Of a stretch of DNA of 64,000 nucleotides, positions 13,921 through 56,616 are shown one piece after another; positions within the stretch are counted from its first letter, which is position 1; each line of letters opens with the position of its first letter. A program made the position numbers and the translations under genes. The DNA is taken from the NCBI RefSeq assembly GCF_030867095.1, contig NC_081837.1:17781001-17845000 (forward strand), in the 5' to 3' direction. The notes beneath the pieces were generated by a model. That model was not told the origin of the DNA. It searched no databases and worked only from the letters and a program-made list of their open reading frames with translations. Source of the DNA: Alligator mississippiensis. Lineage: Eukaryota; Chordata; Crocodylia; Alligatoridae.

Positions 13921-13928
13921 ATGATGAG

Positions 13929-15278
13929 ATGTCCAAAAGGCGAACAAAATCTCAAACTAAAAGTCTAAAAGACTCTCAAAAAAAATTAAAACAGCAGTTA
14001 AAAGCTGTTCGGGAAAAATTGGCTGCTCCCCCAAATTACACGCCGGCCACTGCACCAATGTATCCAGCATTGCCTGGGGTGCCCCCACTGCCAAAGCCAG
14101 CAAAGAATATCCTTAACTTTTGTTCGAACCCTGCTCTCCTGAAACTCCCACATCAGCAACAACCGGTTCAACATCAGGCTGCAGCCCAGGCTAGTAACCC
14201 ATTAGCTGAAGCTCCTTTGGTAAACTCATCTACGGAGCTTAATAGTCCAAACTCATCCACCATACCTGCCACTCAATCATCACCAGTGTGGCAATTTACT
14301 CCTGGGTCACAACCCACCACAGGTGTATTTAGAAGAATGAGAATAGGCACGGAAAGATCTGCCATTAATCTTAGATCCCGGGATGTACAAATTCTGCCCC
14401 TAAGACAAATGCCAGGCATTGGCACCAATGGACAAAATATAGTAACCGTGCATGCACCCTGGACTCCAGGTGATCTCTACAATTTAACTCAAAAATTCCC
14501 CAAAATCAGGGAAGACCCAGAAAAATTTCAGGAAGAATTGCAGACTGTTATAAATTGTTATAATCCAACATGGGCTGACATTAATCAGCTCATGCGATCC
14601 ATTTTGCCCAAGGAAACTATGCTGAGTCTGTACGCTGCCAGTACTTGGCCAGATCAAAACCCAGGGACTGGCCAAGACTTTATTGACAAGAGAAATGCTT
14701 TGGTTCGGGCAGTTCTCACAATTTGCCCAAAAAAGGCAGACTGAACCAAAATAAATACCTGTAAACAAAACAAAAATGAACACCCCAGTGACTATTTGGA
14801 ACTCCTCAAACAGGCATTTGAATGATATTCAGGAATGGATAACCCGGTTGGAAATGCTAAACAAGCAATAGTGGTAGCATTCGTCCAGGGACTTAACCCT
14901 AAAATTGCTGAGAAAATTCAAACAGTTATTATTGGCTGGGAAACTAAAGATTTGACTGAAGTCCTTGCTGCAGCTAACCATTTTCATAACAAATTGGAAC
15001 GGTTCAAAGACAATGCTGAGTTTAAGTTAATGGCCTTACAGATTTCTCAGTTGCAGGGTCCAGGTAGAGGAAGGGGATGAGGACAGGGAAGGAGAGGCCC
15101 CAGTAGATTCAGGGGAAGAGATAGATCCTCGGGCCCACAAAACCCAGGCTATGGGAACCAATGTCATTATTGCAAGCAAGAAGGACATTGGAAATCAGAA
15201 TGCCCCAACCGCCCCGGCCAAGGACCCAGCCCCCAGCCCCCACCTCCTCTTCCTGTCAGTTTTCCCAGTGTTGAATAG
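13929..15278 (+). pseudogene. Endogenous retrovirus gag, gammaretrovirus-like, broken
   Basis: One reading frame, with start at 13929, can be followed as gag-like sequence to an amber codon at 15276-15278, interrupted by TGA codons at 14742, 14822 and 15078. The N-terminal part is lysine-rich and then proline/glutamine-rich. The capsid-like part (residues about 175-250) shows the PGDLYNL, EDPEKFQEEL and NPTWADINQLM pattern typical of gammaretrovirus-type capsids. Near the end a single zinc knuckle, CX2CX4HX4C, is readable at about 15161-15202. Gag would be the structural polyprotein of the particle. The three internal stops make this copy non-functional. No long terminal repeat or primer-binding site could be placed. 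Confidence 0.85.
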
Positions 15279-16270
15279 GACAGCCTGAGGGACAGTGACA
15301 TCATCGCTCCTTTGCTTGCTACTGACCAATCCGGTCCCTTTGTTGAATGCCTTATTTCTGGTAAACCTGTCTCCTGTCTTGTTGATACCGAAGCTTCCCG
15401 CTCCACGCTAAAGGCTACTGAATTTCCTTTCCTACCTCATTTCCCTGAAACTGTAAATGCTGTCGGTATAGGCAGACAGCCTATCCCACATCCCGTCTCT
15501 GAACCTGTCTCCATCTCTATTGGCCCTTTGTCTGAAAATCATGCCTTTCTTCTTAGCCCTTGTGCACCTGCTGAACTCATTGCTTTAACACATACTTACA
15601 TTCTTGCAAAAAATCAAACCACAACCATTTATACTGACTCTAAGTATGCTTTTGGTGTTGTTCATGATTTTGGACAAATCTGGAAACAAAGAGGGTTCCT
15701 CACTTCATCAGGGACCCAAATCAGTCATGGTTGTTATGTAAAAGCGCTCTTAGAAGCTGTTCAACTGCCTTCTGCTATTGCTATTGTTAAATGTAAAGCT
15801 CATGAGAAACCCGTTGATGATGTCACACGAGGAAATGATCGGGCAGACCGTTCTGCCAGAAACGCGGCCCTTTCTGGCCCACAGGCTCCTAACTCTGGTC
15901 TTGTTTGTTTTTCAGCAGACCAGTCTCCTTTGGCTAGCCTTTCAAGTCTGGCCCTTCTTCAAAAACAGGCCCTAAAAAAAGGAAAGGATGGCTGGCTGCG
16001 TGCAGGATGTTCACTGCGCCCCGACTCTCTCTGGCGCTCCCCGGACGGCCGCCTGGTGGCGCCTAGAGAGCTTTTGCCACATCTTGCTCGTTTAACCCAC
16101 ACTGTGGCCCATACGAGCAAAGGGGGAATGATTGCTATAGTACAAAGAGATTGGTTTGCCCCAAATTTTCCTTCCATGGCACAACAGTACTGTAGCTCCT
16201 GTCCCATCTGTCTAGCTTACAATATTGGGCAACGGGTAAAAACGACACCTGCAGCCCATCCCCCTGCATG
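15279..16270 (+). pseudogene. Endogenous retrovirus pol relic: protease, RNase H and integrase N-terminus, reverse transcriptase deleted
   Basis: The pol frame is the same as gag and follows directly after the amber codon, the arrangement gammaretroviruses use for stop-codon readthrough. A protease domain comes first (about 15330-15560); its catalytic triplet reads Asp-Thr-Glu rather than Asp-Thr-Gly, which should abolish activity. At about 15565 the frame passes without a break into RNase H (AELIALT, then YTDSKYAF, then GNDRADRSAR), so the whole reverse transcriptase and connection region are missing. An integrase zinc-binding domain follows (H-x3-H, then C-x2-C at about 16195-16215). The DDE core, env and 3' LTR are absent. 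The open frame runs on to 16490 through unrelated GC-rich DNA. Confidence 0.85.
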
Positions 16271-16274
16271 GGGA

Positions 16275-16455
16275 CTGTGTAAATCTGCAAATGCTGCGAG
16301 CGAGGAGAGCCCCCCCCGGCCTGGTCCGGCCCGGCCCGGCCCGGCCCCGCTGCTGCTTCCCTGCCCTGCCCTGTCCACGCTATGGGACCGCGAAGGATCG
16401 CAGGCGGACCAATCGGCGCACAGAACGGCATCCCTCCCAGCCAATCGCCGCACGT
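16275..16455. promoter_or_regulatory. GC-rich CpG-dense segment with two CCAAT boxes
   Basis: The segment is strongly GC-rich with a run of CGGCCCGGCCCGGCCCGGCC-type repeats at about 16318-16350. It carries two CCAAT motifs in similar surroundings (GGACCAATCGGCG near 16407 and CAGCCAATCGCCG near 16438). It sits exactly between the end of the retroviral pol relic and the broken methyltransferase exon. It resembles a small CpG-island promoter, though GC-rich filler or part of another element is possible. No transcript can be assigned. Confidence 0.35.
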
Positions 16456-16675
16456 CTCCAGGTGTCCCCCTGGCTTTAGCAGGGAGCTGATGTTCTTCAG
16501 GGCAGCACAAAACGTGCCCAGGTCTTTGCAGGCAGCTTCCAAGCACAGTGTGGAGAGCAGGCACTTGGCCGCAGGCAGTGTCATGGGGGCCAGAGGGTTG
16601 GGCTTCCTCACATCGCACTTCAGAGCCTGCTTCACTTTCTTCCTCGGTTTCTCTTCCTTCTCAGCCCACTTTTCC
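16455..16675 (-). pseudogene. NNMT/INMT-like exon 3, 5' half only (relic 2)
   Basis: On the minus strand a clean acceptor (TTTCTTCCCAG) ends at 16676 and is followed by a frame matching the start of exon 3 of the gene at 22232-24433: WAEKE, then [28 protein letters not shown] and [12 protein letters not shown]. Similarity stops abruptly at about 16455, inside the methyltransferase fold, where the GC-rich segment begins. The second half of the exon, including the C-terminus, is missing. No matching exon 1 or 2 was found nearby, so I regard it as a dead tandem copy truncated by rearrangement. Confidence 0.8.
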
Positions 16676-22231: not shown

Positions 22232-24433
<2,202 letters not shown>

Positions 24434-32130: not shown

Positions 32131-33062
32131 CACCGAGTCAAGGGGCGCAGCGCAGAGCTCTATGTCCAGAGGTGCTTGCTAGCCTGGAGGGCAGAGTCCC
32201 TGCCTAAAGCCTCGGTGTTGTGGGTTTGAATCCTTCCCTGGCTAGTAGGGTGATTTCCTGGGTCACTTCTTTGCTCTTGTGGCCTCCTCCTTCTTTCATT
32301 GCTGGGGCCGGTGGCACCGGGTCAACAGGCGCAGCCGACAGCTTCTCCTTCAGTAGAGCTTGCTGGCCTGGTGGGCAGAGAGCTTATCTAGAGAGTTGGT
32401 GTCATAGATTCAAATCCCACCCAGGTTCTATGAGCAAGTGCCCTTTGTAAGCTGGTCTCTGGGGCCAGTGCTGTACTCCCAGGGCCCCTGACTCTTTCAT
32501 TGCTGTGGCCAGAGGCACCAAGTCAAGAGGTACAGCCAAAAGCATTTTCATTAGGAGAGGTTGCTATCCTGGTGGGGAGAGTGCTAGCATAGAGGCTTGG
32601 TGTCATGGGTTCAAATCCCACCCTGGCTCAGACAAGCTGGTCTCTGGGGTCAGCTCTTTACTTCTGGGGCCCCTGACTCTTTCATTGCTGCAGCCAGAGG
32701 CACTGAGTCAAGAGGTGCAGCCGACAGATCTCCAGGAAGAAGAGCTTGCTGGTCTTGTGGGTGAGGCGCTGTCTTTAGACACTGGAAGCATGGGTTCTAG
32801 TCCTGTGTGTGTCTCAGCTGGATGAGTGAGCCAGAGACCCATGGCCTGCGTGCCCCCCTAGCTGTGCTGTTTGAGCGCAACGCAGTTGGGGTTGGCTACA
32901 TGTTTCTTCTTAGGCTGCTGTGCAGGTACCTACAGGCACTGGGTACTGTTGTGGCAGGACCTTTTGGAGGGGTCTGGGGGCATCCAGTTTTGGCACTTCC
33001 GGTGTACATGTGCAGTGTACAGTCGTACATCCAGTGTACAGTCGTCCAGGTGAATGTAGAAG
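32131..33062 (+). repeat. Left arm of a large palindrome: four tRNA-like ~190-bp units
   Basis: Units begin near 32131, 32311, 32512 and 32697, each opening GAGGCACCGAGTCAAGAGG and GCAGCCGACAG, followed by GCTTGCTGGCCTGGTGGGCAG and, in three units, a B-box-like GGGTTCAAATCCCACC. They end CCCCTGACTCTTTCATTGCTG. The fourth unit runs on into about 250 bp of non-tandem DNA up to 33062. The B box plus a weak A-box-like segment points to a tRNA-derived SINE, but no full cloverleaf can be drawn. The same units recur inverted at 33140-33860. Confidence 0.85.
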
Positions 33063-33139
33063 TCCACGTGGACATGACTAGTCTGGTTTTGAGCCTCCCA
33101 GTGACTAAAAGGCATACACATAATCAGTAACAGAGACTT

Positions 33140-33860
33140 CTTTGTTCACCTGGATGACTGTACACTGTACATGTACACCAGGAGTGCCAAAACTGGATGC
33201 CCCCAGACCCGGGGGACCTCTCAAAGGTCCTGTGACAACAGTACCCAGCAACCTAAGGCATGCTGAGAAGCAGCATGGAGCCAAGCCCAACTGCTGTGCA
33301 CTCAAACAGCATAGCAAGGGGGGCACCCAGGCCATGGATCTTTGGCTCACTCAGGATCACTCACCAGGCCCAGACCCTATGCCACCAGTGTCTCAAGGCA
33401 GCATCTCACCCACAAGGCCAGCAAGCTCTCCTTCCTAATGACCTGTCGGCTGCGCCTCTTGACTCGGCGCCTCTGGCCGCAGCAATGAAAGAGTCAGGGG
33501 CCCCCGGAGTAAAGAGCTGGCCCCAGAGACCAGCTTATCCGAGCCAGGGTGGGCTTTGAGCCCATGACACCAAGCCTCTATGCTAGCACTCTCCCCACCA
33601 GGCTAGCAACCTCTCCTGATGAAAAAACTGTCATCTGCGCCTCTTGACTCGGCGCCTCTGGCCGCAGCAATGAAAGAGTCAGGGGCCCCCGGAGTAAAGA
33701 GCTGACCCCAGAAACCAGCTTATCCATGCCAAGTGGGATTTGAACCCACACCACCAAGCCTCTAAACCAGCACTCTCCCCACCAGGCTAGCAACCTCTCC
33801 TGAAAAGGAATGCTTTCGGCTGCGCCTCTTGACCCTGTGCCTCCGGCCCCAGCAATTAAA
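33140..33860 (-). repeat. Right arm of the large palindrome: about three inverted units
   Basis: Read on the minus strand, this arm repeats the left arm in mirror order: CATCCAGTTTTGGCACTCC, GTGTACATGTACAGTGTACAG near the centre, then GGCCTTGTGGGTGAGATGCTG, then two units with CCCCTGACTCTTTCATTGCTG and GAGGCGCCGAGTCAAGAGG at about 33450-33500 and 33635-33690. The third begins near 33815. The spacer between arms is only about 80 bp (33063-33139). Confidence 0.85.
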
Positions 33861-33939
33861 GGGACAGCAGGTTGACCACACTGCAGTACTCAGTGCCAGG
33901 GCTCGGGCAGAGGTGCAAGTGCAGCCAAATCAGGTGGAG

Positions 33940-34044: not shown

Positions 34045-35880
34045 AGGAGGGAGACAGCTGGAGAGACCAAGGGTGTGCCACAGGCCTTGGGCCCCGGCCC
34101 TCCCCGGGAGCTGGTTAAATACAGGGTTGTGTTCCTGTATTAATGCAGAGCCTAGGACCATCTTAGACTCCTCTCAGACTTCCCTTGCTTTACTTAACCA
34201 AGGGGTCATCATCACTGCACCCGCGTGAAGCAGGGACCTGTTACATGGAGCACCTGGTGCGTGGAAGGGGGGTGCAGATTGAGACTCAGGGCAGAGCCAC
34301 AACAAAAACGGACCTTGGGCAGGTAAAGTGGGGCTTCGGTTGCAAGCCAGGAGCCTGCATCCAACACTGCTACCCGAAAACCGCGACTTGGCTGCTGCCC
34401 AAACCTGGAGGTGACCAGACATCAGGGCCTCCTGTATCTCGGACCTTAAGGCTTCCCCGATGGCAACAGCTGCGTCTCAGTGAAGGCCAAAAAGTTTCCC
34501 AATCTTACCCGATCAGCAGCCAGGCGCCCAACTCCCCTAAACCCGTCAGCATTCAGAAGATACGCCTATCTCCCCAGCCAGCCCCGCTGCCCCCATGGAG
34601 CAGCGCCGGCTCACGCCGCCCCGCACCTCTTCTCCGGCCCTGCAAACACCACGTCCCGCAGGCCGGGCCCGCCACCTCCGCCAAGCCCTCGGCTCCCGGC
34701 TCAGCCCTACCCCGAGCAGGGTTGGCTTTCCCTTGCGGGCTGCCAGGTGGAGCTGGCAGCACTGAGCAGGGGTTCTTCCTTCGGTACATTTTTTGTTTTT
34801 TGATGTGGATCAGCCAAAAGCAAGAGTAGCTTTGTATCCTATGTCAATCAGAAGCCTCCACTTGGTCAAATGCATTTTTGTTTCCACGGTTCGAAAATAT
34901 TCATTCCCTCCCTCCAGCCAAATGTGCTGGGAAACGTGCTGACCGTCACTGACTCACCATTTCCCCAATAATTAAAATAAGTAATATGGCTGAAAATAAA
35001 TTCAAAATAAATTTAAAAATTATATATTTTAAAAATATAATGGCAGTGAGAAAATGTGTCTGGCTCTCTCCCAACTCAGTAGCCCCTCAGGGATGAAAAT
35101 CGGGAGACATGGCTGAAAGCCCGTGGACATTACATTGAACAGGCATGGGGAGGGGCGGAAACCACAGTTGGACTTCAGGGACTCGCGAAAACCTGGAGGC
35201 GACTGGGGATCGACACAGGCATTCTCCTTCTCGCAAGGGGACAAGTACATCTTCCCCCTGCCGTGACCCAGCCTGGTACAGAAAGAGCACCCACCGTGCT
35301 AGTAGAAGTAGCAAGACTCGTACCAGAGCCATTCAGAGACTACGGTCTGAAACGCTGGAACTAAACCACACCAAGAAGCTGGGAAGTTAGTCCTAAGTAT
35401 TTTACTTTTACTGGGACCAGTTTCTCTTTTTAGACGAGGATCGGCTGAACTTCCACAGATCGTACCAAAGCATCACTACTTCACTGTACCTTATTTTCAG
35501 TTCCTCACAGAATCAGGACTGATTTCCTACAGTGCATTAGCAATTGTGAACTGATGACTAGGAACCATCTGTTACAGTCTTTTACCACTTGTAAATCACA
35601 ACAGGAAACATTTGCATTAAACAAGTAAGACCACGGACTGGATCAGTAGATAGAATGAAAAAGTTTATTCCTTCAGCCAGCCTCAGTAGGAAGGATAATG
35701 GCTGAATCTTCTCAATGTAGACAAGCACCAGCCACAAGGTAAAAAGTTTTTTATACCGTTGAGTGTTCGACTGTGTACATCTTAAGCCCACTTGTTCCTA
35801 CCGGTTAGACAATGACGTCAATTAACTTTACGATCGTTTGGACACGGGACAAGATCTTCGTCCCAATTGGAGTTGGAGAT
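34045..35880. other. GC-rich then AT-rich DNA, no recognised gene
   Basis: 34430-34760 is CpG-rich with an open frame of 214 codons (34185-34829) that lacks a domain. 34970-35045 is nearly pure A/T. A frame without ATG, about 35083-35365 on the plus strand, has varied composition (for example ETWLKARGHYIEQAWGG) but I cannot identify it. AATAAA on the minus strand at 35664-35669 could serve the cassette at 36.3-37.1 kb. A palindromic TGACGTCA (CRE-type) sits at 35813-35820. Confidence 0.4.
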
Positions 35881-35884
35881 TAAC

Positions 35885-36266
35885 ACTTTCAAACACCCAT
35901 GGAGCCTTCACTTCCAGACGCAAACAAACTGCACCACAAACAGCCTCAAATTGGCCCCGCAACCTCCAGCCGAAGCAGCTACAGCCAAGCCACGAACAGA
36001 ACCGAGCACAAACCTGCGTTTCTACGCTACCACCGAGAACCGCTCAACAAGAAAAACCTACACGCTGCCTTCAGTCGCATCTATTTGGACCAACCGCTTA
36101 ACTAGCAAAGCCAAACAACCCGCAAAACCCTCGACTGCCGCATATCAGTACGCACAACCGGCACAATGCCTCAACCTCGTCACGCACAATTGGGGCCAAC
36201 CCAAGACCAAATGCACGGTGCAACTTGAAGCGTGGGGCTGCTTGCTCCTAATGGGTGTTTGAAAGT
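35885..36266. mobile_element. 382-bp element with perfect 16-bp inverted termini
   Basis: ACTTTCAAACACCCAT at 35885-35900 is repeated as its exact reverse complement at 36251-36266. The interior is unusually poor in G and rich in A and C on the plus strand, contains many CpG and is open in long stretches of all three plus frames (131 codons at 35867-36262 is the longest). No target-site duplication is obvious. The ends suggest a DNA transposon or MITE. The skewed, non-repetitive interior is odd for a MITE, so captured sequence is possible. Confidence 0.6.
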
Positions 36267-36349
36267 GGAGAGATGCACACCGTCTCCATCAGGACTCGTC
36301 TAAGCATGCATTAACAATTCCCCTCCCGCCCACCCCAACCCACGCTATT

Positions 36350-37044
36350 TGTTCCCCAGCTTCTTTTCCTGCTTCCGTTCGCTCTTGTCCAGCTGCCCTT
36401 CAGGGACCTGCAATAGTACACAAGACAGAAGTCAAGCTGACTGGCAATGAGTTGCACACCCCCCATAGCATATAAAATAACGTAGCTCACACCGCCTACT
36501 CAAACTTGGTGTCCTTTCAAAACAAGGGGGGGGTGACATATGTCTGGTTTCCTAAATGAGTACCCCGCTAGCACTCACCCGTGTATGACAACAGGAGGAC
36601 CTAAGGCACGAATCCTGTGTATAAGGGGGTCCCACTGCTCCAAACCTTCCACGACATGTTCATCACAAGGTCGGCAACTTGGGGATGCAACTTGCAGAGA
36701 GGACAGACACTGTGTTCAAACTCCTTTACCTTCCCTCCGGGTGGGCTGACGTGGGTCTCTTCCCTCCTTGGTGGCTAACTCCTGCTCGTCTGCCATTTCC
36801 CTGCTTCTCCTTCTGGAGCCTTAGAAAACAGACAGGCACTGGATTTAAGTCAGCACGTCAGAGGACGAGACTGCAGGCCCCAACTTCTCTTCTCCTCTTA
36901 CCTGTGAATGGACCTGCTGCCACTCCATCGTCAGTCCGTGCAAAGTGGGAAGAGCAGACGTCTGCAGGTTCGGCCTCTGACATCCAGCCAGGAGCAGAGT
37001 GCGATGGGCCAGAACTCCGGACAGAACTGCTCGGGCGGCACCAT
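36350..37044 (-). other. Exon-like cassette A (duplicated gene fragment of unknown identity)
   Basis: On the minus strand a series of exon-like pieces with good splice signals can be read: an upstream open piece from ATG 37044 (starts MVPPEQFCPEFWPIALC); a piece ending at 36902 with donor CACAG|GTAAGAG; 36819-36730 between acceptor TTTTCTAAG and donor GGAAG|GTAAAG (frame contains RRRSREMADEQELATKEG); 36690-36579 between CTCTGCAAG and ACACGG|GTGAGT (frame contains CDEHVVEGLEQWDPLIHRIR); and a last piece from 36407 after TACTATTGCAG (frame VPEGQLDKSERKQEKKLGNK then stop). The first three joins keep one frame; the join to the last piece does not keep the frame that looks most protein-like. Cassette B at 39.0-40.2 kb has matching pieces. 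I do not recognise the protein. Confidence 0.45.
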
Positions 37045-37069
37045 GAACGGTGACCGCAAGCACCGGCAA

Positions 37070-39221
37070 CCCTGCTTACAGGGCGGTGCTCCCTGCACAC
37101 AGCTGGCTGCTGGGGTATGAAGCCCGGAGACAACCTGCAAAGCCCCGAATGCCAGCTGACAGCTGCATCGGGAGGTCTCGATCAGGGGTCAAAGCTGCCC
37201 CGTGTGTCCAGAGCACAAGAGGGCCACAACTTCAGGCTCCCATCACAGAACCAACGGAGGCCAAAGGTCTAAACAATGTCTCTTCCCCCCACGGCCAGAA
37301 GGGGTGGGGGCGCAGCCCTGCTTACAGGGTGCCGCGGGAGGCCGTCTCAATAGCGCCAGGAGCAGCAGAGCAGAGGAGCAGAGACCTGGACCCAAGTTAC
37401 AGGAAGGTCAGGAAGCCTTGGGGTCCCAACACACTCAGTATCTTCCAGAAGCCTGCAACTTTCCCTGCAATCCGTGGGTATCGTCTCTGGCTGGCCTCTC
37501 CAAGTGGAACGAGAAGTAGAGAATCAAAGGGACCTGCACCCTGCTTACAGGCTGCAGGCCGGGCGTGGGGGTGCCGAAAAACAGCCGGCCAAGTGCCAGG
37601 GCGCTCGTCTCGCCAAGGACTTGGGGATGGAATACATAGCCTGCTCTCAAAAATGACGGCAGTAACCCTTCATGCGAGCTACTGAGTGACCACAAGAACA
37701 TGCTAGTCACCCAACAAAAGGGGGCCCCTACCCTGAGATACACTGAGGTCTTTTTTCCAAAGTGATTAGGGGTGGCCTAATGCACCCCCAGGCCAGAAGG
37801 CACAAGAATTAATAGCAGTGCTTAACCCCCTAGGGGAAGAGGTGGGAGGAGAAGGCAACGAGGACGCATCTCACCCCTTTTCCAGCACTGGGAAGAAAAC
37901 AAAGTACGCTGCAGCGATTTTAAGAACATAAAGAAAATAAATGCTTTTGTTCCCAGGCACTCCTCTCTCTCGTCATCCACACTCTCACACGGGTAAAAAG
38001 ACTGTTCCCAGGCTGGAAAGGAGCTCCATGCCGCAAACCGCTTCACCTCCAGCCTTCCACGGGAAAATCCTCCTCCGCTCCCAGGGGGCAAGAAGGCTGA
38101 GACCGGCACCCGCCTTACAGGGCCCGGCCTGCCTGACTAGTCACACTGCCCACAAGGGGCAAAAGGGAAAGGCCCACAGCCCTGCTTACAGGGAGAGCTG
38201 ATAGCCAGGCAAAGGACAGAGCTGTCCCCAGAGGCACAGTGAGACCTGGACCCTGCTTACAGGGTGGTCCACAGCTCTGCAGACCCCAGCCCTCCACCAG
38301 GGGCGTGGGACTCGCACCCTCATTACAGGGTGGCCCAGCCATCCGGATGTGGAGTGCCAGGCATAGATGCAGGAAGGAGGACCGGTGCCTGGACACAGGG
38401 ATCGGAGAGGAGGCCACTAGCTTCAACCCAGCCACAGGAGGGTCGTCCAGCTCTGGGGTCTAAGGAGTTTGCCATCACCCCACGAGACTCGGCTCCTGTC
38501 TGCAAGGCTGCCCTGCGGCACTGTGCTGCAGACTGCTCTGGCTCGCTCACGCCAGCGCAAGGAGGCTACGTCCACCCTGCTTACAGGGGCACCTCTCCGA
38601 CTGGCTGGCTATGGCAGCGGACCTGGCCTCCCAGTTACGGGACGTCCAGCGCTACGCACGTCCAAACCCCCTGTCCTTCTCCTGTGATAGCAGGCACCAC
38701 GCACCCTGCTTACGGGAGCCTGCGCCGTTGGCAGCCACGTCTAGCAGCTGGCCTGGACCCCGACTACAGGGCGGCTGCGCTGCGCTGCACAAGACCACCA
38801 ACCAGATCCACAGCTTTACGAACGAGGTGGCGGCGACACACGCCTTGCTTACAGGGCTGCCCACCTGCCACCTGACTGCTGCACAAGTGCAACACCATCG
38901 AGGGCAGAGACACATTTCCAGGTTATAAGGAGTTTGCCCAAAAGCTCACGCGCCCAAAATTTGGCCAATACATGATGGAGACCTAAAGGCAGGGAGGCCG
39001 TTCCGTCCAGAGTCCCTTTCCTTTGCATCCTGCTTTGCTGGCTTTTGGCCTCTCGTGGTTTGCCAGCCGCATGTCCTTCTGGCAGCTGCAAGAAGGAAAA
39101 AGAAGAGAAATAACAACCCACCCCTGGAAAAATACAGAGAGACAGTCTGGGTGTGAGGCATGGAGCCAGGGACCGAGACAGAAATTTCTAACGCTCTGTT
39201 AGATCACCAGGGCTTACAGGG
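37070..39221 (+). repeat. ~72-bp periodic array with palindromic core CCCTGCTTACAGGG
   Basis: The core or a close variant occurs at 37070, 37316, 37391, 37539, 38109, 38180, 38251, 38317, 38575, 38630, 38704, 38759, 38843 and about 39208. Adjacent spacings are mostly 66 to 75 bp, and 148 is twice that. The core is an inverted repeat, CCCTG-CTTA-CAGGG. Read on the plus strand, almost every copy encodes (H/D/S/N)-P-x-Y-(R/G) whichever frame surrounds it, with changes falling in the x codon and in wobble positions. Between cores the sequence is GC-rich and poorly conserved, and stops prevent one long frame. It is a degenerate minisatellite, not a CRISPR array. Confidence 0.75.
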
Positions 39222-40215
39222 AAGGACCAGTCTTCTGTTCAGCAGAGGGGCGAGCATGCCCTCTCCTTGTTCAGCTTCCCAGGACTGGGGCAGTTGGACA
39301 TGGCAAGCCATGGGCCACAAGCCTACAGGCCCAACTTGTACCATGGCACAATAGATGGCACCTGGGATCCTACCGACAGGATGGTGCCCCTCCCAAGCAC
39401 CGGCTTCCGTGGCAGAAAGCCAGCCTCACAAGGGTTGCTCAGGTGGCGCGGTTCAAGAAAGCAAGCCGCCCCACACCTGGAGGACAACAGGCAGAAACTA
39501 CCACTTTCCTGGCAAGGAACTCAAAACTCTCGAGTGCGGGTGTTTTCAACCTTTGCTTGGTCCTTCAAGTGGGGCATGTAATGAAACCCCGGATAACAGC
39601 AGCGAGTGGGGGAGCCAGGCTCTTCCCCAAGCGACAGGAGGCTCACAATGCCCGCTGCCCTAAAGAGCTCGCTGCCTTGTAAGAAGAAGGGGGACAGGAC
39701 ATCCCTCTGGCTTGCAGGACCCTCAGGACTCCACCTAAACCTGACCCATGCACGACAACATCAGGCGCTAAGGCATGAACTTGGCACCTCCTTATAAGCA
39801 ACAGTCCAGCCTTCTGGGGTCTACAGCTTGACAACTGATCCCAAGATCTAGTTTGACAATGGAACCGCACCACCCCAAATGTCACCCTGGCAAAACTCCG
39901 TTACCTTTCTGGGCTGGCACGGTTTTCTGGCCTCCTCAGCCGACTCCTGCTTGTGTGTCATGATCCTGCTTCTCCTCCCAGCGCAGACAGGCCCTGCACT
40001 CACTCACCAGATGGGAAGACAAGTTTGTGGGCCGCAACTTCTCCCTGTCTTTCACCCATACCCGAATCTGCTGCCAGTCCGTCCTCTGTCTATGGAAAAG
40101 GGAGAGGGAGAGGGCACACGTGCTGGCTTGGCACTGACATCCGGGGCAGCCAGCAGCAGAGCACGATGGCCCAGGACTCTGGACAGAACTGCTCAGGCGG
40201 CACCATGAACGGTGA
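39005..40215 (-). other. Exon-like cassette B (paralogue of cassette A)
   Basis: On the minus strand this repeats cassette A. The block from about 40215 (CTTGCGGTCACCGTTCATGG) is nearly identical to the start of A. A piece 40089-40062 lies between acceptor CCCTTTTCCATAG and donor TTCGG|GTATGG. A piece ending at 39905 with donor AGAAAG|GTAACG contains MTHKQESAEEARKPCQPRK from ATG 39961. A piece near 39805-39740 reads VHALAPDVVVHG against IRALGPPVVIHG in A. A last piece starts at 39085 after TTTCCTTCTTGCAG (LPEGHAAGKPREAKSQQ). Several splice sites present in one cassette are lost in the other, so at least one is probably degenerate. Amino-acid-level similarity in the same frame favours former coding function. 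Confidence 0.45.
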
Positions 40216-41005
40216 CCGCAAGCACTGTTATTGCCTTGTTCCCCCTGCCTTTCCCCAGACCTCTGACACTGCTATCGCCTTGTCTCCACTGCCTTTTCTC
40301 CTGATCTCTGCCACCGCTATCACCTTATCAGGAGAAAAGGCAGTGGAGACAAGGTGATAGCAGTGGCAGAGGTCAGGGGAAAGGGCAGTAGACACAAGGC
40401 GATAGCAGTAGCACAGGTCAGGAGACAAGGCAGTGGCAATCAGGTGATAGCAGTGGCAGAGATCAGGAGAAAAGGCAGGGGAGACAAGGTGATAGCTGTG
40501 GCAGAGATCAGGGGAAAAGACAGTGGAGACAAGGTGATAGCGGTGGCAGAGATCAGGAGAAAAGGCAGTGGAGACAAGGCGATAACAGTGGCAGAGATCA
40601 GGGGAAAAGGCAGTAGACACAAGGCAATAGCGGTAGCAGAGGTCATGGGAAAAGGCAGTGGAAACAAGGCAATAACAGTGGCAGAGATCAGGGGAAAAGG
40701 CAGTGGAGACAAGGCGATAACAGTGGCAGAGGTCAGGGGAAAAGGCAGTAGACACAAGGCAATAGCGGTAGCAGAGGTCAGGAGAAAAGGCAATGGAGAT
40801 CAGGCGATAGCAGTGGCAGAGATCAGGAGAAAAGGCAGTGGAGACAAGGTGATAGCAGTAGCAGAGGTCATGGGAAAAGGCAATGGAGATCAGGCTTTAG
40901 CTGTGGCAGAGGTCAGGAGAAAAGGCAGTGGCAATCAGGCGATAGCGGTGGCAGAGATCAGGAGAAAAGGCAGGGGAGACAAGGCGATAGCCGTGGCAGG
41001 CCACG
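40215..41005. repeat. 45-bp minisatellite with an orientation switch
   Basis: About fifteen units of 45 bp (GATAGCAGTGGCAGAGATCA, then GGAGAAAAGGCAGTGGAGAC, then AAGGC or variants) run from about 40330 to 41005. From 40215 to about 40328 the same unit occurs about two and a half times in reverse complement, so the array turns round at about 40329. As 45 is a multiple of three and the unit lacks stops, a 218-codon plus frame and a 175-codon minus frame result; I do not regard either as a gene. Confidence 0.9.
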
Positions 41006-41039
41006 GTTAGAAGAGAACAGAGCAAGGGTGAAAAGGACC

Positions 41040-41283
41040 CTTGGCTTGGGGGACCAAGGAGACAGGGGCAAAGAGGTGCCTAAACCTCCCTGCTCTGGGA
41101 CATGCACCAGCTGCACCAGGGAAATGGGGCACCTGCCTCTGGAGCTGGATAAAGGGGGATGCTCAGCACACCAAGCTCCAAGGCCAGGCTGCCCAGGCAC
41201 AACACCAACCAGGGCTCATCTGGGAGTTAAACCCAGGATCTCTCACATCCTAAGTAGGAATCATGCCCCTAGACCAACAAGTC
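41040..41283 (-). repeat. Duplicated tRNA-Pro neighbourhood, copy 1
   Basis: The block GAGGTGCCTAAACCTCCCTG, CATGCACCAGCTGCACCAGG, CCTGCCTCTGGAGCTGGATA, GCTCAGCACACCAAGCTCC matches 43470-43590 in order and orientation. In both copies it lies directly on the 3' side of a tRNA-Pro sequence on the minus strand, so the tRNA and its flank were duplicated together. Confidence 0.75.
41212..41283 (-). pseudogene. tRNA-Pro (AGG) pseudogene
   Basis: The minus strand matches the tRNA-Pro at 43614-43685 over all 72 positions with substitutions. The anticodon loop still reads TTAGGAT. The acceptor stem has an A-C mismatch, the anticodon stem has a C-A mismatch, and the T loop is altered (TTTAACT). It therefore looks decayed. 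Confidence 0.75.
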
Positions 41284-41284
41284 A

Positions 41285-41925
41285 CGTGCCTATCATTGCT
41301 CACCTTTACCCTGCAAGAGTCCATGTGACCCCTGAGCACCTGAGCAGCAGCTGCACCACAGGCAGGCCCTGCTGGCCTTGGCCTCATGCTGCAGAAGGGG
41401 GAGAAGACAGTGCAGGTGGAGCAGCAGCCACCCTCACTGCTGGGGTCTGGGGGTGCAGCAGCCCTCCCATGGTGGGCACAGGATCTGCAGACAGAGTCAT
41501 AGAGGGCTGCACCAGCATGCTGCAGACTGCTGTGGGACAAGAAAGCAGGTGGCCAGGGAGCATCATGTGGGACTACCTTTTAAAGAGTAATCCTAGCACG
41601 CACGCAGCTGTGGCTGGAGCCTCCACCTCCTGCTAGCTATGGCAGGGAGGCAGAGCAGGGCCAGAGGAGGCGTGGACCAGGCTAATCCCATAAGGAGGAA
41701 ATCTCTTCCAAATGGATGCATGTGTAGACAACATCCCAGGGCTGGCTCATTGCACAGGACATTACTGAGCAGTAAACCCAAATAGCATTAATTGCATGTG
41801 TAGGCAGACCCTGTGACTTATGAGGGACGACTTGTGACTGAGTACAATGATCTGACGAGGTTTGAATAATGATTGGTTTTAGAGTCCAGAGTTCCAAAAT
41901 GTATCCCACGAACTGTGTTAAAGCA
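41285..41925. other. No recognised gene
   Basis: GC-rich DNA with many CAGCAG/CTGCTG-like words around 41340-41530. No frame with a domain was seen. Confidence 0.4.
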
Positions 41926-41929
41926 AGGA

Positions 41930-41984
41930 AATAGTGAGAGTTGAACTCCCAAGCCCAGGCCTCTACACCCTGAGCTACAGAGCC
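41930..41984 (-). pseudogene. Truncated tRNA-like sequence
   Basis: The minus strand reads GGCTCTGTAGCTCAGGGTGT, then AGAGGCCTGGG, then GGGAGTTCAACTCTC. This gives an acceptor-like start, a D arm (GCTC...GAG) and a T-arm-like hairpin, but the anticodon arm is missing or collapsed. It lies about 20 bp on the 3' side of the tRNA-Thr gene. Confidence 0.4.
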
Positions 41985-42002
41985 ACACCAAGTGCAAGAC
42001 AT

Positions 42003-42076
42003 AGGCCCTGCTGGGATTTGAACCCAGGATCTCCTGTTTACTAGACAGGTGCTTTAGCCAACTAAGCCACAGGGCC
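42003..42076 (-). tRNA. tRNA-Thr (AGT)
   Basis: Read on the minus strand it gives a perfect cloverleaf: acceptor GGCCCTG pairs with CAGGGCC, D stem GCTT with AAGC, anticodon stem CCTGT with ACAGG around loop CTAGTAA (anticodon AGT), and T stem CTGGG with CCCAG around TTCAAAT. There is no intron and CCA is not encoded, as expected for a eukaryotic gene. Internal A and B boxes are intact. I saw no immediate T-run on the 3' side, where the truncated tRNA-like piece lies instead. Confidence 0.93.
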
Positions 42077-42221
42077 TCCTGTCTCTGGGTCAAAATCATG
42101 GGAATTTCAGCAGTATCATTCAGGATTTATGTCAGGACATCAGCTTAGTTTATTTGTGTCCCTACAGGAGCCTGATGATCAGGGTTTTCCATTTCCCTCG
42201 GAAAAACATGGAGTAAACCGT

Positions 42222-42320
42222 GTTGCAGGGGTTTAGGTTGTAGCTGTGTTGGTCTAAGGATATAGGCAGACAAGGTTCCTTGGGTGAATTTGATATCTTT
42301 TATTAGACCAACCTGAATGG
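42222..42320 (-). repeat. Dispersed repeat family R, copy 3 (reversed, partial)
   Basis: It reads GTTTAGGTTGTAGCTGTGTT, GGTCTAAGGATATAGGCAGA, CAAGGTTCCTTGGGTGAATT, TGATATCTTTTATTAGACCA and then breaks off. This copy shows the terminal part of the family that is missing from the shorter copies. Confidence 0.7.
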
Positions 42321-42324
42321 AGTA

Positions 42325-43435
42325 AACCGTGGATTTTACCTTTTACCGGAGGCAAATGTGGATTTCTCATTTTACCAGGGAAGCCCGTAAATTTTGCAGT
42401 TTTGCCATGAGCTCCCTGCAGACTGGCACAGTTCATGTTTGCCAGGAGCTGGCAGGGAGCTGGAGGAGGGCGGTACACGCACATGGCCCCAGGCAGCCCA
42501 GAAAGCAGGTCCTGATGGGGGGTGTAGGAAGGGGCGGTATTGAGCCCCCATAGGGAGGGAAGGGGAGATAGGGGTAGTTGGAGAAGAAGGGGGCTGGGGC
42601 TGCCCCACTGTTCCCTGCCATGCTGGGTCGTGCCCACTGGGCTGCGGCGGTCCCAGAGTAGGGGAGCAGGGTGAGAGCCTGAGCCCGCAGGCTGTGCCCA
42701 CAATGTGGATAGATCTGGGGGGTGCAGGTCCCCCCTGCCTCCAGGGAATGCGTGCAGAGCCAGAGAGCTGCCACCCCCTCCGCCCAAGGACACAACCTGC
42801 CCTGCGCTCAGATCTGGCGGGCACGGGTTCCCCCTGCCCCCTGGGCGTGCATGCAGCAACGGAGAACCAGCCTCCCATGCCCAAGTCCACAGCAGGCAGG
42901 CAGCAGCGGGGAGCCGGGCTGCAGAAGCTGTGACCTCCTGCCTCCTTGCCCAACTCACAAGCTTCTCCTCTTCTCCTTCCCTCTTCTCCTCTTCACACAC
43001 CACACCAGGTAACAAGGCCACACACCTTGCCAGAGGAAGGACTTCAATCAGGGAACTTCAAACTGGGCAGCCAATGCTCTACCAGCTCAGTGACACAGCT
43101 TCTAGGAAAGAAAGAGCATCCCTCTCGGCTCAAGACCGTCAAGCAGGCCAGCGAGCAAGTGAAAATGGTAGCAGCCAAGCATTTCTATCGGCTTCACCAC
43201 GTGGTGGAGCTTGCACATGGCCCCTCCAACTGAGCTCCAGCCCCTGGCACAGGTACCACCTTCCACATCTCCACACCACAGGTTCTGCACCAACCGAACT
43301 GTGCCCTGAAGACGCCTTGCTCAAGGACATTCTTCCCTAACGACAGCTCCCTCACCCACACAAAAGTACTCACCTGTCCCGGTGCCAGGCACTGCCTTTT
43401 GAAAACCCCCACAGCTCAACTTGATGCCTCGATGG
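42325..43435. other. GC-rich DNA with a weak tRNA-like piece, no recognised gene
   Basis: Frames up to 255 codons overlap on both strands at 42254-43340, typical of GC-rich DNA, and none has a domain. At 43039-43096 the minus strand reads CACTGAGCTGGTAGAGCATT and TTCCCTGATTGAAGTCC, resembling a D arm and T arm of a decayed tRNA. Confidence in that reading is low. Confidence 0.4.
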
Positions 43436-43469
43436 CCACCGTCATCCAACACTATGGGTTTGGGGGGAG

Positions 43470-43613
43470 CAAGGAGGTGTCTAAATCTCCCTGCTCTGGG
43501 CCATGCACCAGCTGCACCAGGGAAATGGCCTCACCTGCCTCTGGAGCTAGATAAAAGGGGCTGCTCAGCACACCAAGCTCCAAGGACACGTGGTGCAGGC
43601 ACAGTGCTAAACA
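43470..43613 (-). repeat. Duplicated tRNA-Pro neighbourhood, copy 2
   Basis: It carries the same ordered words as 41040-41211 (GAGGTGTCTAAATCTCCCTG, CATGCACCAGCTGCACCAGG, GCTCAGCACACCAAGCTCC) on the 3' side of the intact tRNA-Pro. The two copies are about 2.4 kb apart in direct orientation with the tRNA-Thr between them. Confidence 0.75.
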
Positions 43614-43685
43614 GGGCTCATCTGGGAGTTGAACCCAGGACCTCCCACACCCTAAGTGGGACTCATGCCCCTAGACCAACAAGCC
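43614..43685 (-). tRNA. tRNA-Pro (AGG)
   Basis: The minus strand folds as a 72-nt tRNA: acceptor GGCTTGT pairs with ATGAGCC (two G-T pairs), the anticodon stem CCCAC pairs with GTGGG around TTAGGGT (anticodon AGG), and the T stem CTGGG pairs with CCCAG around TTCAACT. The discriminator base is C. Compared with the copy at 41212-41283 all stems are intact, so this is probably the functional gene. A 5'-truncated CR1 starts only some 10 to 20 bp from its 5' end. Confidence 0.9.
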
Positions 43686-43694
43686 AGGTACCAT

Positions 43695-45290
43695 TAATGG
43701 TGATTTCGTGAAGGAACATCTTGAGAAGCTGGATGCCTTCAAGTCAGCCGGCCCTGACAATCTTCACCCCAGCGTACTCAAGGAGCTGGCGAGCATCATA
43801 GCCCAGCCTCTAGCACGGATCTTTGAAAACTCTTGGCGCTCTGGTGTAGTGCCCGAAGACTGGAAGAAGGCCAATGTGGTGCCTCTCTTCAAGAAAGGGA
43901 GGAAAGTGGATCCGGCTAACTATAGGCCCATCAGCCTGACTTCTATGCCCGGGAAGATCTTAGAAAAGTTTATTAAAGAGGCCATGCTTAATGGACTGGC
44001 CGACGTCAACATCTTAAGGGATAGCCAGCACGGGTTTGTTGCGGGTAGGTCTTGCTTGACCAATCTCATTTCCTTCTACGACCAGGTGACCTATCACCTG
44101 GACAAGGGAGAAGAGATTGATGTCATATATCTTGACTTCAAAAAAGCCTTCGATCTGGTTTCCCATGATCGCCTCTTGGAGAAACTGGCCAATTGTCGCC
44201 TTGGGTCCTCCACGATCCACTGGCTGCAAAATTGGCTCCGGGGTCGGACCCAGAGGGTAGTAATTGATGGAAGTCACTCATCGTGGTGTCCTGTGACCAG
44301 TGGAGTCCCCCAGGGCTCTGTCCTTGGACCAGTACTGTTCAACATCTTCATTAATGATGTGGACACTGGAGTCAGAAGCGGACTGGCCAAGTTCGCCGAT
44401 GACACCAAACTTTGGGGCAAAGCACCCACACCAGAAGACAGGCGGGTGATCCAGGCTGACCTGGACAGGCTCAGCAAGCGGGTGGACAAGAATCTGATGG
44501 TGTTCAATGCCGATAAATGCAAGGTTCTCTACCTTGGGAAGAAAAACCTGCAGCATCCTTATAGGCCCGGCAGTGCTACGCTGGCTAGCACTATGGAAGA
44601 AAGAGACTTGGGGGTCATCATGGACCACAAGATGAACATGAGCCTGCAATGCGATGCTGCAGCTAGTAAAGCGAGCAAAACACTGGCTTGCATCCATAGA
44701 TGCTTCTCAGGCAAATCCCGGGACGTCATTCTCCCCTTGTACTCGGCCTTGGTGAGGCCGCAGCTGGGGTACTGCGTCCAGTTTTGGGCTCCACAATTCA
44801 AAAAGGATGTGGAGAAGCTTGAGAGAGTCCAGAGAAGAGCCACGCGCATGATCAGAGGTCAGGGAAGCAGACCCTACGATGACAGGCTGAGAGCCCTGGG
44901 GCTCTTTAGCCTGGAAAAGCGCAGGCTCAGGGGTGATCTGATGGCCACCTACAAGTTTATCAGGGGTGACCACCAGTATCTGGGGGAATGTTTGTTCACC
45001 AGAGCGCCCCAAGGGATGACGAGGTCGAAAGGTCACAAACTACTACAAGACCATTTCAGGCTGGATATAAGGAAGAATTTCTTTAGTGTTCGAGCCCCCA
45101 AGGTCTGGAACAGCCTGCCACCGGAGGTGTTTCAAGCGCATACATTGAACACCTTCAAGAGCAAACTGGATGCTTATCTTGCTGGGATCCTATGACCCCT
45201 GCTGACTTCCTGCCCTTTGGGCAGGGGGCTGGACTCGATGATCTTCCAAGTCCCTTCCAGCCCTAATGTCTATGAAATCTATGAAATGTA
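43695..45290 (+). mobile_element. CR1 LINE, 5'-truncated, with an open 495-codon reverse-transcriptase frame
   Basis: The frame 43708-45195 covers the reverse-transcriptase domain and C-terminus of CR1 ORF2. Motifs in order are AFKSAGPDNLHP, NYRPISLTSMPGKILEK, YLDFKKAFDLVSHD, SGVPQGSVLGPVLFNIFIND and the catalytic FADDTK (about 44391-44408). After these come the region with ERVQRRATRMI and LRALGLFSLEKRRLRGDLMA, and the end WNSLPPEV. There is no stop or frameshift across the whole piece. ORF1 and the endonuclease are missing, so it cannot move by itself. The 3' part ends with CTATGAAATCTATGAAATG at about 45270-45288, the repeated tail used by this LINE clade for priming. High intactness implies a fairly recent insertion. 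Confidence 0.93.
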
Positions 45291-49870: not shown

Positions 49871-50149
49871 TAAGATAAGCCTAGGGGTTTCAGAAAGGAA
49901 TCCAAGTGGCAGAAACATCCTGAAATGTTGTTATCCGAGCTCTTTGCAACTGCAGCACGGATCTATTGTTTTTCTGTAGTCAAAAAACAAGTGAAAATTA
50001 AGCTGGCATTTTACGAGGGCTGCCTCGAGTTTATAAAGGTTGAGACCCCAAATGCACACACGCCAGGCCTCAAGCTGTTCAGCAGGGTGCAGCAGGAACC
50101 TGGGTGCTGGTGTGCATACCGGAGGGCTGCTATGTACAATTGAGGTCTA

Positions 50150-50430
50150 AGAGCGGCACTCGGGCCCGCTGGAGGCAGGTCTACTTGGTGCTTTTTGCCC
50201 TTATGTCCCCTGCTGGCATTGCTGTGGGCATTGGGGTCTCGTTTTCTGTGGGGGATGCCAGCAGCCTGGCCAGGGCTGTACTGGAGGGGGTGGCAGCTGG
50301 GACTTTTCTCTATGTCACCTTCATAGAGATCCTGCCCCATGAACTGCACTCCTCGGAGGCTCCACCTGCCAAATTCTTCTTCATTGGCATTGGCTTCACT
50401 TTCATGGCTGTCATTGCCATATGGGCCTGA
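50150..50430 (+). pseudogene. SLC39A2-like zinc transporter (ZIP) C-terminal fragment
   Basis: The frame reads LVLFALMSPAGIAVGIGVSF, then SVGDASSLARAVLEGVAAGT, FLYVTFIEILPHELHSS and ends with the TM8-like IGIGFTFMAVIAIWA before TGA 50428-50430. This is the last three membrane segments of a ZIP1-subfamily metal importer and resembles SLC39A2 most. The first five segments, including the metal-binding TM4-TM5, are not found upstream, where the frame is interrupted. No clear acceptor is visible. It is probably an isolated pseudogene fragment; a last exon of a real gene with distant exons is less likely. Confidence 0.7.
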
Positions 50431-55662: not shown

Positions 55663-56616
55663 ATGAATGACCCTCTGGGATGCGCCAGGAGGGAGAATGG
55701 CACCATGGTGATGGTGACACAATTCATACTCTTGGGCCTTTCTAGCCGCTTGGAAGACCAGTTCATCCTCTTTGGATTCTTCACAGTCTTCTACCTGACG
55801 GCCCTGGTGGGAAACCTACTTATCTTAGTGATGATCAGCATGGACTCCAGGCTCCACACGCCCATGTATTTCTTCCTGGGCAATCTGTCAGTGGTGGACA
55901 TAGGCTACACCACCTGCACGGTGCCCAAGATGCTGGTGAACTACCTGTCACAGGACAAGTCCATCTCGCTTCCTGGCTGCCTCACTCAGATGTACTTCTT
56001 CATTTCCTTTGGGGGGATCGAGTGCCTGCTGCTGGGGGTCATGGCGTATGACCGCTATGCTGCCATCTGCCACCCGCTGCGCTATGGTGTTCTGATGAGC
56101 CAAAGGGCATGCTCTTGTCTGGCTGCAGCTGCCTGGGCCGTTGGCTTGGCCAACTCGGCTGTGCACTTGGGTCTGATGTTCCGCTTGTCCTTCTGTCATG
56201 ACAACGTCATCCGCCACTTTTTCTGTGACATCCCCCCACTTTTCCAGCTCTCCTGCTCTGACACGCGGATCAATCAGATTGTCACTTTTGCTGTGGGAGG
56301 TGCTGTCATCATGGGCTCCTTCCTGGTGACTCTTGTGTCCTACATCTACATTGTTCTGGCCATCCTCAGGATCCACACCAAGGAAGGACGCCTCAAGGCC
56401 TTTTCCACCTGCACCTCCCACCTGGCTGCAGTCAACCTTTATTTTGGCACCATCATCTTCACCTACATCCGCCCCAATTCCAGCTACTCCCAAGAGCAGG
56501 ATCGGGCTCTGCCTGTGCTCTATGGCATTATCACCCCCATGTTAAATCCTATTATCTATAGCCTGAGAAACAAGGAGGTGAAGAGGGCTCTCCAGAAAGC
56601 CTTAGGCAGGAGCTAG
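55663..56616 (+). CDS. Olfactory receptor, class II, intact
   Basis: A single-exon odorant GPCR of 317 residues for the plasma membrane of olfactory sensory neurons, where it would act through the olfactory G protein and cAMP. An acceptor-like CTCCTTCTAG sits directly before the ATG at 55663, as is usual for OR coding exons. The N-terminus has a glycosylation site (NGT). Seven membrane segments can be placed. Hallmarks in order are LVGNLLIL (TM1), RLHTPMYFFLGNLSVVD (TM2), conserved Cys plus MAYDRYAAICHPLRY (end of TM3), SY in TM5, KAFSTCTSHLA (TM6) and PMLNPIIYSLRN (TM7). The tail KRALQKALGRS is short, as usual. There are no frame breaks and the length matches the family, so it is probably functional. 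A start at the in-frame ATG 55705 would remove the glycosylation site and is less likely. Confidence 0.96.
   Translation: MNDPLGCARRENGTMVMVTQFILLGLSSRLEDQFILFGFFTVFYLTALVGNLLILVMISMDSRLHTPMYFFLGNLSVVDIGYTTCTVPKMLVNYLSQDKSISLPGCLTQMYFFISFGGIECLLLGVMAYDRYAAICHPLRYGVLMSQRACSCLAAAAWAVGLANSAVHLGLMFRLSFCHDNVIRHFFCDIPPLFQLSCSDTRINQIVTFAVGGAVIMGSFLVTLVSYIYIVLAILRIHTKEGRLKAFSTCTSHLAAVNLYFGTIIFTYIRPNSSYSQEQDRALPVLYGIITPMLNPIIYSLRNKEVKRALQKALGRS

What the first reader, a model, noticed from the sequence alone, without database searches (positions are those of the whole stretch)
36350..40215. Two paralogous exon-like cassettes, each joined to a different tandem array, may be an undescribed gene family
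Seen: cassettes A and B on the minus strand share a near-identical opening block (CTTGCGGTCACCGTTCATGG onward) and then a series of pieces with matching order, several bounded by good acceptors or donors. In several pieces the same frame resembles the other copy at the amino-acid level (MADEQELATKEG against MTHKQESAEEARK; IRALGPPVVIHG against VHALAPDVVVHG). Directly upstream of the shared block, A has the 72-bp palindromic array and B the 45-bp minisatellite. Inference: a tandemly duplicated multi-exon gene or pseudogene pair whose 5' regions attracted unrelated minisatellites. I do not recognise the protein.
Basis: partly seen in the sequence, partly recalled or inferred. Interest (0 to 1): 0.8.

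Follow-up and report, generated by a model that had tools for sequence, protein, structure and literature searches.

The report
Decayed copy of chromosome-end gene family
The two cassettes are the last two repeated modules of a broken copy of a many-copy gene in a crocodilian genome, whose near-identical complete copies sit near the ends of many chromosome-sized sequences and point toward those ends; it looks like an undescribed RNA-type gene family rather than a protein gene.

Summary
A (37063-36407, minus strand) and B (40225-39085) are paralogous: 64% over 590 columns, 176 bits against at most 29.7 for 200 shuffles. They are not a local pair. The window's own genome has at least 40 places like A. 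Complete versions lie near scaffold ends: 22 of 22 near-identical (95-100%) promoter/exon-1 matches are within 1 Mb of an end and point toward it. The complete copy L029 has a CpG-island promoter (CCAAT-type boxes, TATA, 103-bp repeats), three modules of small exons separated by the 72-bp hairpin array, and AATAAA. Thirteen end copies on ten scaffolds are 97.6-99.7% identical. The window copy, interstitial at C14:17.8 Mb, lacks promoter and first module. Coding is not supported: codon positions vary about equally and exons are no more conserved than introns. The 72-bp array belongs to the family; the 45-bp minisatellite does not. Best reading: a truncated, decaying member of an undescribed subtelomeric, probably non-coding gene family. 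No RNA data were available.

The parts
40147..40225 (-). B (module 1): opening block, 91% like that of A
39905..39961 (-). B: remnant of the MAD exon (frame MTHKQESAEEARKPCQPRK), donor GTAACG kept, acceptor stretch deleted
38939..39085 (-). B: basic exon; acceptor TTGCAG before 39085; matches the alligator model P0001 at 39079-38939 (63%)
37061..38900 (-). 72-bp hairpin array (core CCCTGTAAGCAGGG), the family's own intron sequence between modules
36985..37063 (-). A (module 2): opening block; the exon runs on to the donor after 36902
36730..36819 (-). A: MAD exon (ATG at 36796; MADEQELATKEGRDPRQPTRRE); donor GT kept in 17 of 17 compared copies
35664..36407 (-). A: terminal exon up to AATAAA (35669-35664); acceptor AG kept in 16 of 17 compared copies
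40223..40999 (-). 45-bp minisatellite in place of the promoter and module 0 of complete copies; switches orientation at about 40327

Best explanation
Shown: A and B are modules 2 and 1 of one interstitial, 5'-truncated copy of a multicopy gene. Its complete form sits near scaffold ends, points toward the end, and is near-identical between chromosomes; the complete copy read in full (L029) has a CpG-island promoter, three repeated exon modules separated by hairpin-array introns, and a polyadenylation signal. Inferred: RNA polymerase II transcribes the end copies toward the chromosome end into a spliced, polyadenylated and mainly non-coding RNA; exchange between chromosome ends keeps those copies alike; segmental duplication seeded the interstitial copies, which decay without visible constraint; unequal exchange between the shared blocks changes the number of modules. 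The window copy has no promoter of this kind and is most likely inert.
For: 40 A-type places. 22 of 22 promoter copies at 95-100% lie within 1 Mb of a scaffold end and point to it; 26 of 26 chosen module-0 exon rows do too. CpG observed/expected 0.82-0.96 over the promoter with CCAAT-type boxes, TATA and exon-1 start kept in three relatives whose wider surroundings are not alignable. Exon-1 donor, MAD acceptor and donor and basic-exon acceptor unchanged in 13 of 13 end copies. Two alligator models use the same junctions, and the MAD exon of L028 gives the same 22 residues as P0001. No coding signal. The window lacks promoter and module 0.
Against: No transcript was seen. The two scaffold ends that I read (1.2 kb each) carry no telomere array, so the distance to real telomeres is unknown, and the genome-wide TTAGGG search did not complete. 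A-type interstitial copies that lie within 1 Mb of an end do not follow the orientation rule: C7:0.88, C11:0.15, C11:75.6 and C15:38.36 Mb point away, C7:0.37 and 0.39 Mb toward. Interstitial copies keep their splice dinucleotides, but they are about 87% alike everywhere, so this says little. A 47-aa frame is open in 12 of 13 end copies.
Confidence: 0.62

Rival explanations
1. A protein family: the MAD and basic exons encode small, very basic proteins (in end copies MADGSERADREGGKRGQP...); the end copies are functional and the interstitial copies are pseudogenes.
For: The ATG GCA GA start recurs in three modules of different copies; the 47-aa spliced frame is intact in 12 of 13 end copies, and L029 2701-2800 has 0 of 100 polymorphic columns among 13 copies; the database holds two alligator proteins.
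Against: Extra states by codon position 23/14/19 (MAD) and 9/10/14 (terminal exon) in 17 copies, pairwise differences 303/303/280 in the basic exon; the two alligator models read the basic and terminal exons in another frame than the short frame; L042 has a stop in the MAD frame; no Pfam match. Most of these copies are interstitial, so the test is weaker for end copies.
Confidence: 0.13
2. A mobile element: a promoter-bearing, non-autonomous element (LTR-like or retroposon) spread the unit and later gained hairpin repeats.
For: More than 40 places; relatives on C1 and C3 share only about 320 bp of promoter and exon-1 start with L029.
Against: No terminal repeat in the L029 self-comparison, no reverse transcriptase or transposase domain in the 10 of 15 longest L029 frames scanned; copies come with large flanks and cluster on few scaffolds, and end copies form 31-34 kb tandem units on C2, C7 and C16, all as in segmental duplication.
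Confidence: 0.15
3. An untranscribed subtelomeric macrosatellite or segmental duplication with no function; the exons are relics.
For: Conservation is flat over exons and introns in interstitial copies; end copies are near-identical throughout; the unit is flanked by related 16-bp-period repeats on both sides.
Against: CpG-island promoter with undecayed CpG and conserved boxes in order; splice sites kept in 13 of 13 end copies.
Confidence: 0.1

Closest known systems
Human TERRA promoters with 61-29-37 repeats (passages of PMC6600276 seen)
   Same: CpG-rich promoter with tandem repeats on many chromosome ends (about twenty in the passage), transcription toward the telomere.
   Different: Here the repeat unit is 103 bp and the unit is a multi-exon gene with its own AATAAA about 87 kb from the scaffold end in the copy read; no telomere repeat was seen next to it and no RNA is known. 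Sequences were not compared.
Subtelomeric segmentally duplicated gene families such as human WASH or DDX11L (recalled, not tested)
   Same: Near-identical gene copies on many chromosome ends in one orientation, with interstitial relics.
   Different: No sequence comparison was made; no known protein domain here.
Alligator mississippiensis hypothetical proteins Y1Q_0018165 and Y1Q_0012746
   Same: Same exons and junctions.
   Different: Annotated as uncharacterised proteins; my tests find no coding constraint in the copies compared.
Crocodilian satellite DNAs (passages of PMC9656864 and PMC10900743 seen)
   Same: Repeated DNA, some with signals in subtelomeric regions (CNI-Sat-96, CNI-LTR-48).
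   Different: The passages seen describe no promoter-bearing multi-exon unit; sequences were not compared.

Membership tests
Subtelomeric multicopy gene family | near-identical copies on many chromosome ends | tested here: met
   22 of 22 promoter copies at 95-100% within 1 Mb of a scaffold end, on 14 ends; 13 copies on ten scaffolds 97.6-99.7% identical. Scaffold ends, not proven telomeres.
Subtelomeric multicopy gene family | gene structure: promoter, splice sites, polyadenylation signal | tested here: met
   sequence features in L029 and, from promoter to basic exon, in 13 copies
Subtelomeric multicopy gene family | spliced transcripts | not testable with these tools
   no RNA data at hand; alligator gene models only
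Protein-coding gene family | selection on the reading frame | tested here: not met
   codon positions vary about equally; flat conservation. For end copies alone the data are too alike to decide.
TERRA-type transcription unit | CpG-rich, repeat-bearing promoter aimed at the chromosome end | tested here: met
TERRA-type transcription unit | transcription into TTAGGG repeats | tested here: inconclusive
   two scaffold ends read show no array; genome-wide pattern search unanswered
LTR retrotransposon or other autonomous mobile element | terminal repeats and an element-encoded enzyme | tested here: not met
   no terminal repeats in L029; no Pfam match in the 10 longest frames scanned. A non-autonomous element is not excluded.

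The most novel reading that the evidence does not exclude
A crocodilian counterpart of the TERRA promoter: a CpG island with tandem repeats, copied to many chromosome ends and kept alike by exchange, drives an end-directed, spliced, hairpin-rich non-coding RNA that acts in subtelomeric chromatin or telomere maintenance.
Probability: 0.15. Interest if true: 0.85.

Novelty: new member of a known kind. Interest (0 to 1): 0.58.

Why it matters
If the end copies are transcribed, crocodilians have a promoter-bearing transcription unit present near many chromosome ends and aimed at them, a setting in which TERRA-like roles and exchange between chromosome ends could be studied in long-lived reptiles. 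It also suggests that two alligator 'hypothetical proteins' are fragments of a largely non-coding repeat gene. For this window it turns an apparent local gene pair into a relic of a genome-wide family.

Tried and rejected
Rfam: in the window only a tRNA reached its cut-off and in L029 nothing; the many microRNA matches at 40244-40410 are the inverted minisatellite forming a hairpin, below their gathering scores. Cassettes as a local pair: rejected. Array as a foreign minisatellite: rejected. Coding: not supported. The longer frame of the basic exon (RRKGTLDR...), open in several copies: no excess of third-position changes. Solved structures: one match at E 1.6, taken as chance. Relatives outside crocodilians: three protein searches gave only two A. 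mississippiensis models and two unnamed ORFs from contigs of 974 and 1184 bases; the method needs shared 5-residue words and one search scored only the best 7993 candidates, so absence elsewhere is not shown. Literature: eight searches listed no title on this family; only open-licence papers are held, and I saw listings plus passages of three papers. Not answered: copy number of B alone, genome-wide TTAGGG, whether interstitial copies share clusters with olfactory receptors.

Full report
Setting. The window is C14:17781001-17845000 of an assembly of 2.35 Gb in 195 contigs. I take it for a crocodilian from its alligator matches (inference); it does not carry the A. mississippiensis models unchanged (best P0001 match 91%). 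Among ten frames of the window given to Pfam were NNMT/PNMT-type methyltransferase pieces, a ZIP transporter piece, two olfactory receptor frames, a reverse transcriptase and retrovirus-like frames.

The observation. A and B align over 590 columns at 64% (E 1e-47), far above shuffles, with a 79-bp opening block at 91%. The 72-bp array (core CCCTGTAAGCAGGG) and the 45-bp minisatellite are real. A further piece pairs as well: A from 36407, B from 39085.

Not a local pair. A splice of the A pieces found one protein, A. mississippiensis Y1Q_0018165 (P0001, E 1.7e-3), whose parts lie in order on the minus strand of the window: 39079-38939, 36932-36882, 36811-36731, 36409-36344. A second model, Y1Q_0012746 (P0003), joins opening block, MAD exon and terminal exon. 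In the window's own genome A has 40 places with matches over 400 bp at 81-100% (164 candidates, 40 scored, plus 9 short rows): C7 17, C11 11, C15 6, C14 3, C13 2, C3 1. Of the C14 places one is the window and one an inverted copy identical over the 10 kb compared.

Complete copies near scaffold ends. P0001 as query gave 150 scored matches of 305 candidates. I picked by eye the 26 rows of the module-0 exon type within 1 Mb of a scaffold end: 26 of 26 point toward that end, on 16 ends, 24 at 88-205 kb and two at 860 and 941 kb. I left out the second-module rows about 3.3 kb further on. Interstitial-type copies within 1 Mb of an end do not follow the rule: C7:0.88, C11:0.15, C11:75.6 and C15:38.36 Mb point away, C7:0.37 and 0.39 Mb toward. 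Promoter and first exon alone gave 44 rows (319 candidates, 40 scored): 22 at 95-100%, all within 1 Mb of an end (14 ends) and pointing to it, and 22 rows at 71-89%, mostly interior. None of the 44 lies at the window. On C2, C7 and C16 the units recur at 31-34 kb steps.

Anatomy of one complete copy, L029 (C16:86500-96499, minus strand; q counts from its 5' end). CpG island q1-1000 (observed/expected 0.82-0.96); CCAAT-type boxes at q515, q542, q634 and TATA at q676; 103-bp tandem repeats; donor GGGGAG|GTGAGG. Module 0: MAD exon with ATG at q2343, basic exon from q2728. Hairpin array. Opening block q4919, module 1. Array. Opening block q8449, module 2, terminal exon from q8948, AATAAA q9776. 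In L029 itself the module-2 MAD exon is dead. Array plus opening block of modules 1 and 2 are 93% identical over 1757 bp. Fourteen further regions were fetched; twelve of them with L029 make thirteen end copies that are 97.6-99.7% identical over about 3.1 kb; the other two, L042 and L043, are 70% and 60% like L029. All thirteen keep the exon-1 donor, MAD acceptor and donor, and basic-exon acceptor.

What the window copy lacks. Module 0 and the promoter: L029 q1-2300 finds no counterpart in the window, CpG observed/expected at 39601-43600 is 0.06-0.35, and the minisatellite stands there instead. The minisatellite occurs in 6 of 20 fetched loci (L009-L013, L022); in L011 and L013 it abuts the A opening block and in L012 the B basic exon, which would fit exchange between repeated blocks (inference). 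The 72-bp array is present at least in part in 15 of the 20 loci; L011, L013, L014, L016 and L027 lack it.

Coding. For 17 A-type copies (21 at hand, 4 near-identical ones dropped) identity is about 0.87 over 37064-36090, exons and introns alike, with a dip to 0.71 just before the MAD exon. Extra states by codon position: MAD exon 23/14/19, terminal exon 9/10/14. Basic exon, 9 sequences: 303/303/280 pairwise differences. Frameshifts, stops and lost starts occur. A 47-aa spliced frame is intact in 12 of 13 end copies (read by eye; L038 has lost the ATG), weak evidence in sequences this alike.

Promoter. Relatives on C1 and C3 (L048, L049) share with L029 only q460-782, promoter and exon-1 start (69-71%), with boxes, TATA and exon-1 start largely kept, and carry other repeats downstream. 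The promoter block is thus the part that can be traced furthest; a functional transcription unit would show this, and so would a mobile promoter.

Verdict. A truncated, decaying copy of an undescribed, probably non-coding, end-directed gene family. The comparison with TERRA promoters is an analogy of layout. Transcription, distance to real telomeres and function are not shown.

Noticed in passing
window 42003-42076 (-) and 41212-41283 (-): tRNA-Thr gene (Rfam 71.8 bits) and a weaker tRNA-Pro-like copy (23 bits, below the cut-off; ARAGORN calls it) just upstream of the minisatellite.
   Followed up: no
L009 (C14:18.46 Mb) and L010 (C14:19.94 Mb): 100% identical inverted copy and 99% copy of the window region over the 10 kb compared: recent segmental duplication or an assembly duplicate.
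   Followed up: no
window 40327: The 45-bp minisatellite reverses orientation, giving near-perfect inverted arms of 58-91 nt.
   Followed up: no
L048 (C1:387.84 Mb) and L049 (C3:151.32 Mb): Old relatives share the promoter and exon-1 start but run into other repeats (CTGCATGAGGCAG type), as if one promoter had been joined to several hairpin arrays.
   Followed up: partly
window 32449-33861: 185-bp tandem repeats, which also lie beside many of the fetched family copies on C7 and C11.
   Followed up: no
L046 and L047 (C16 flanks of L029): Both flanks of the complete copy carry related CTCCAGCTCTGAATAT-type repeats, and a second GC-rich stretch lies downstream of the AATAAA.
   Followed up: no
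window 13920-16490 (+) and 43675-45195 (+): Retrovirus-like frames (Gag_p30, RNase H, integrase zinc-binding matches) and a 506-aa LINE-type reverse transcriptase frame.
   Followed up: no
window 22232-23241 (-), 50044-50430 (+), 55663-56616 (+): NNMT/PNMT-type methyltransferase pieces, a ZIP transporter piece and an open 317-aa olfactory receptor frame.
   Followed up: no
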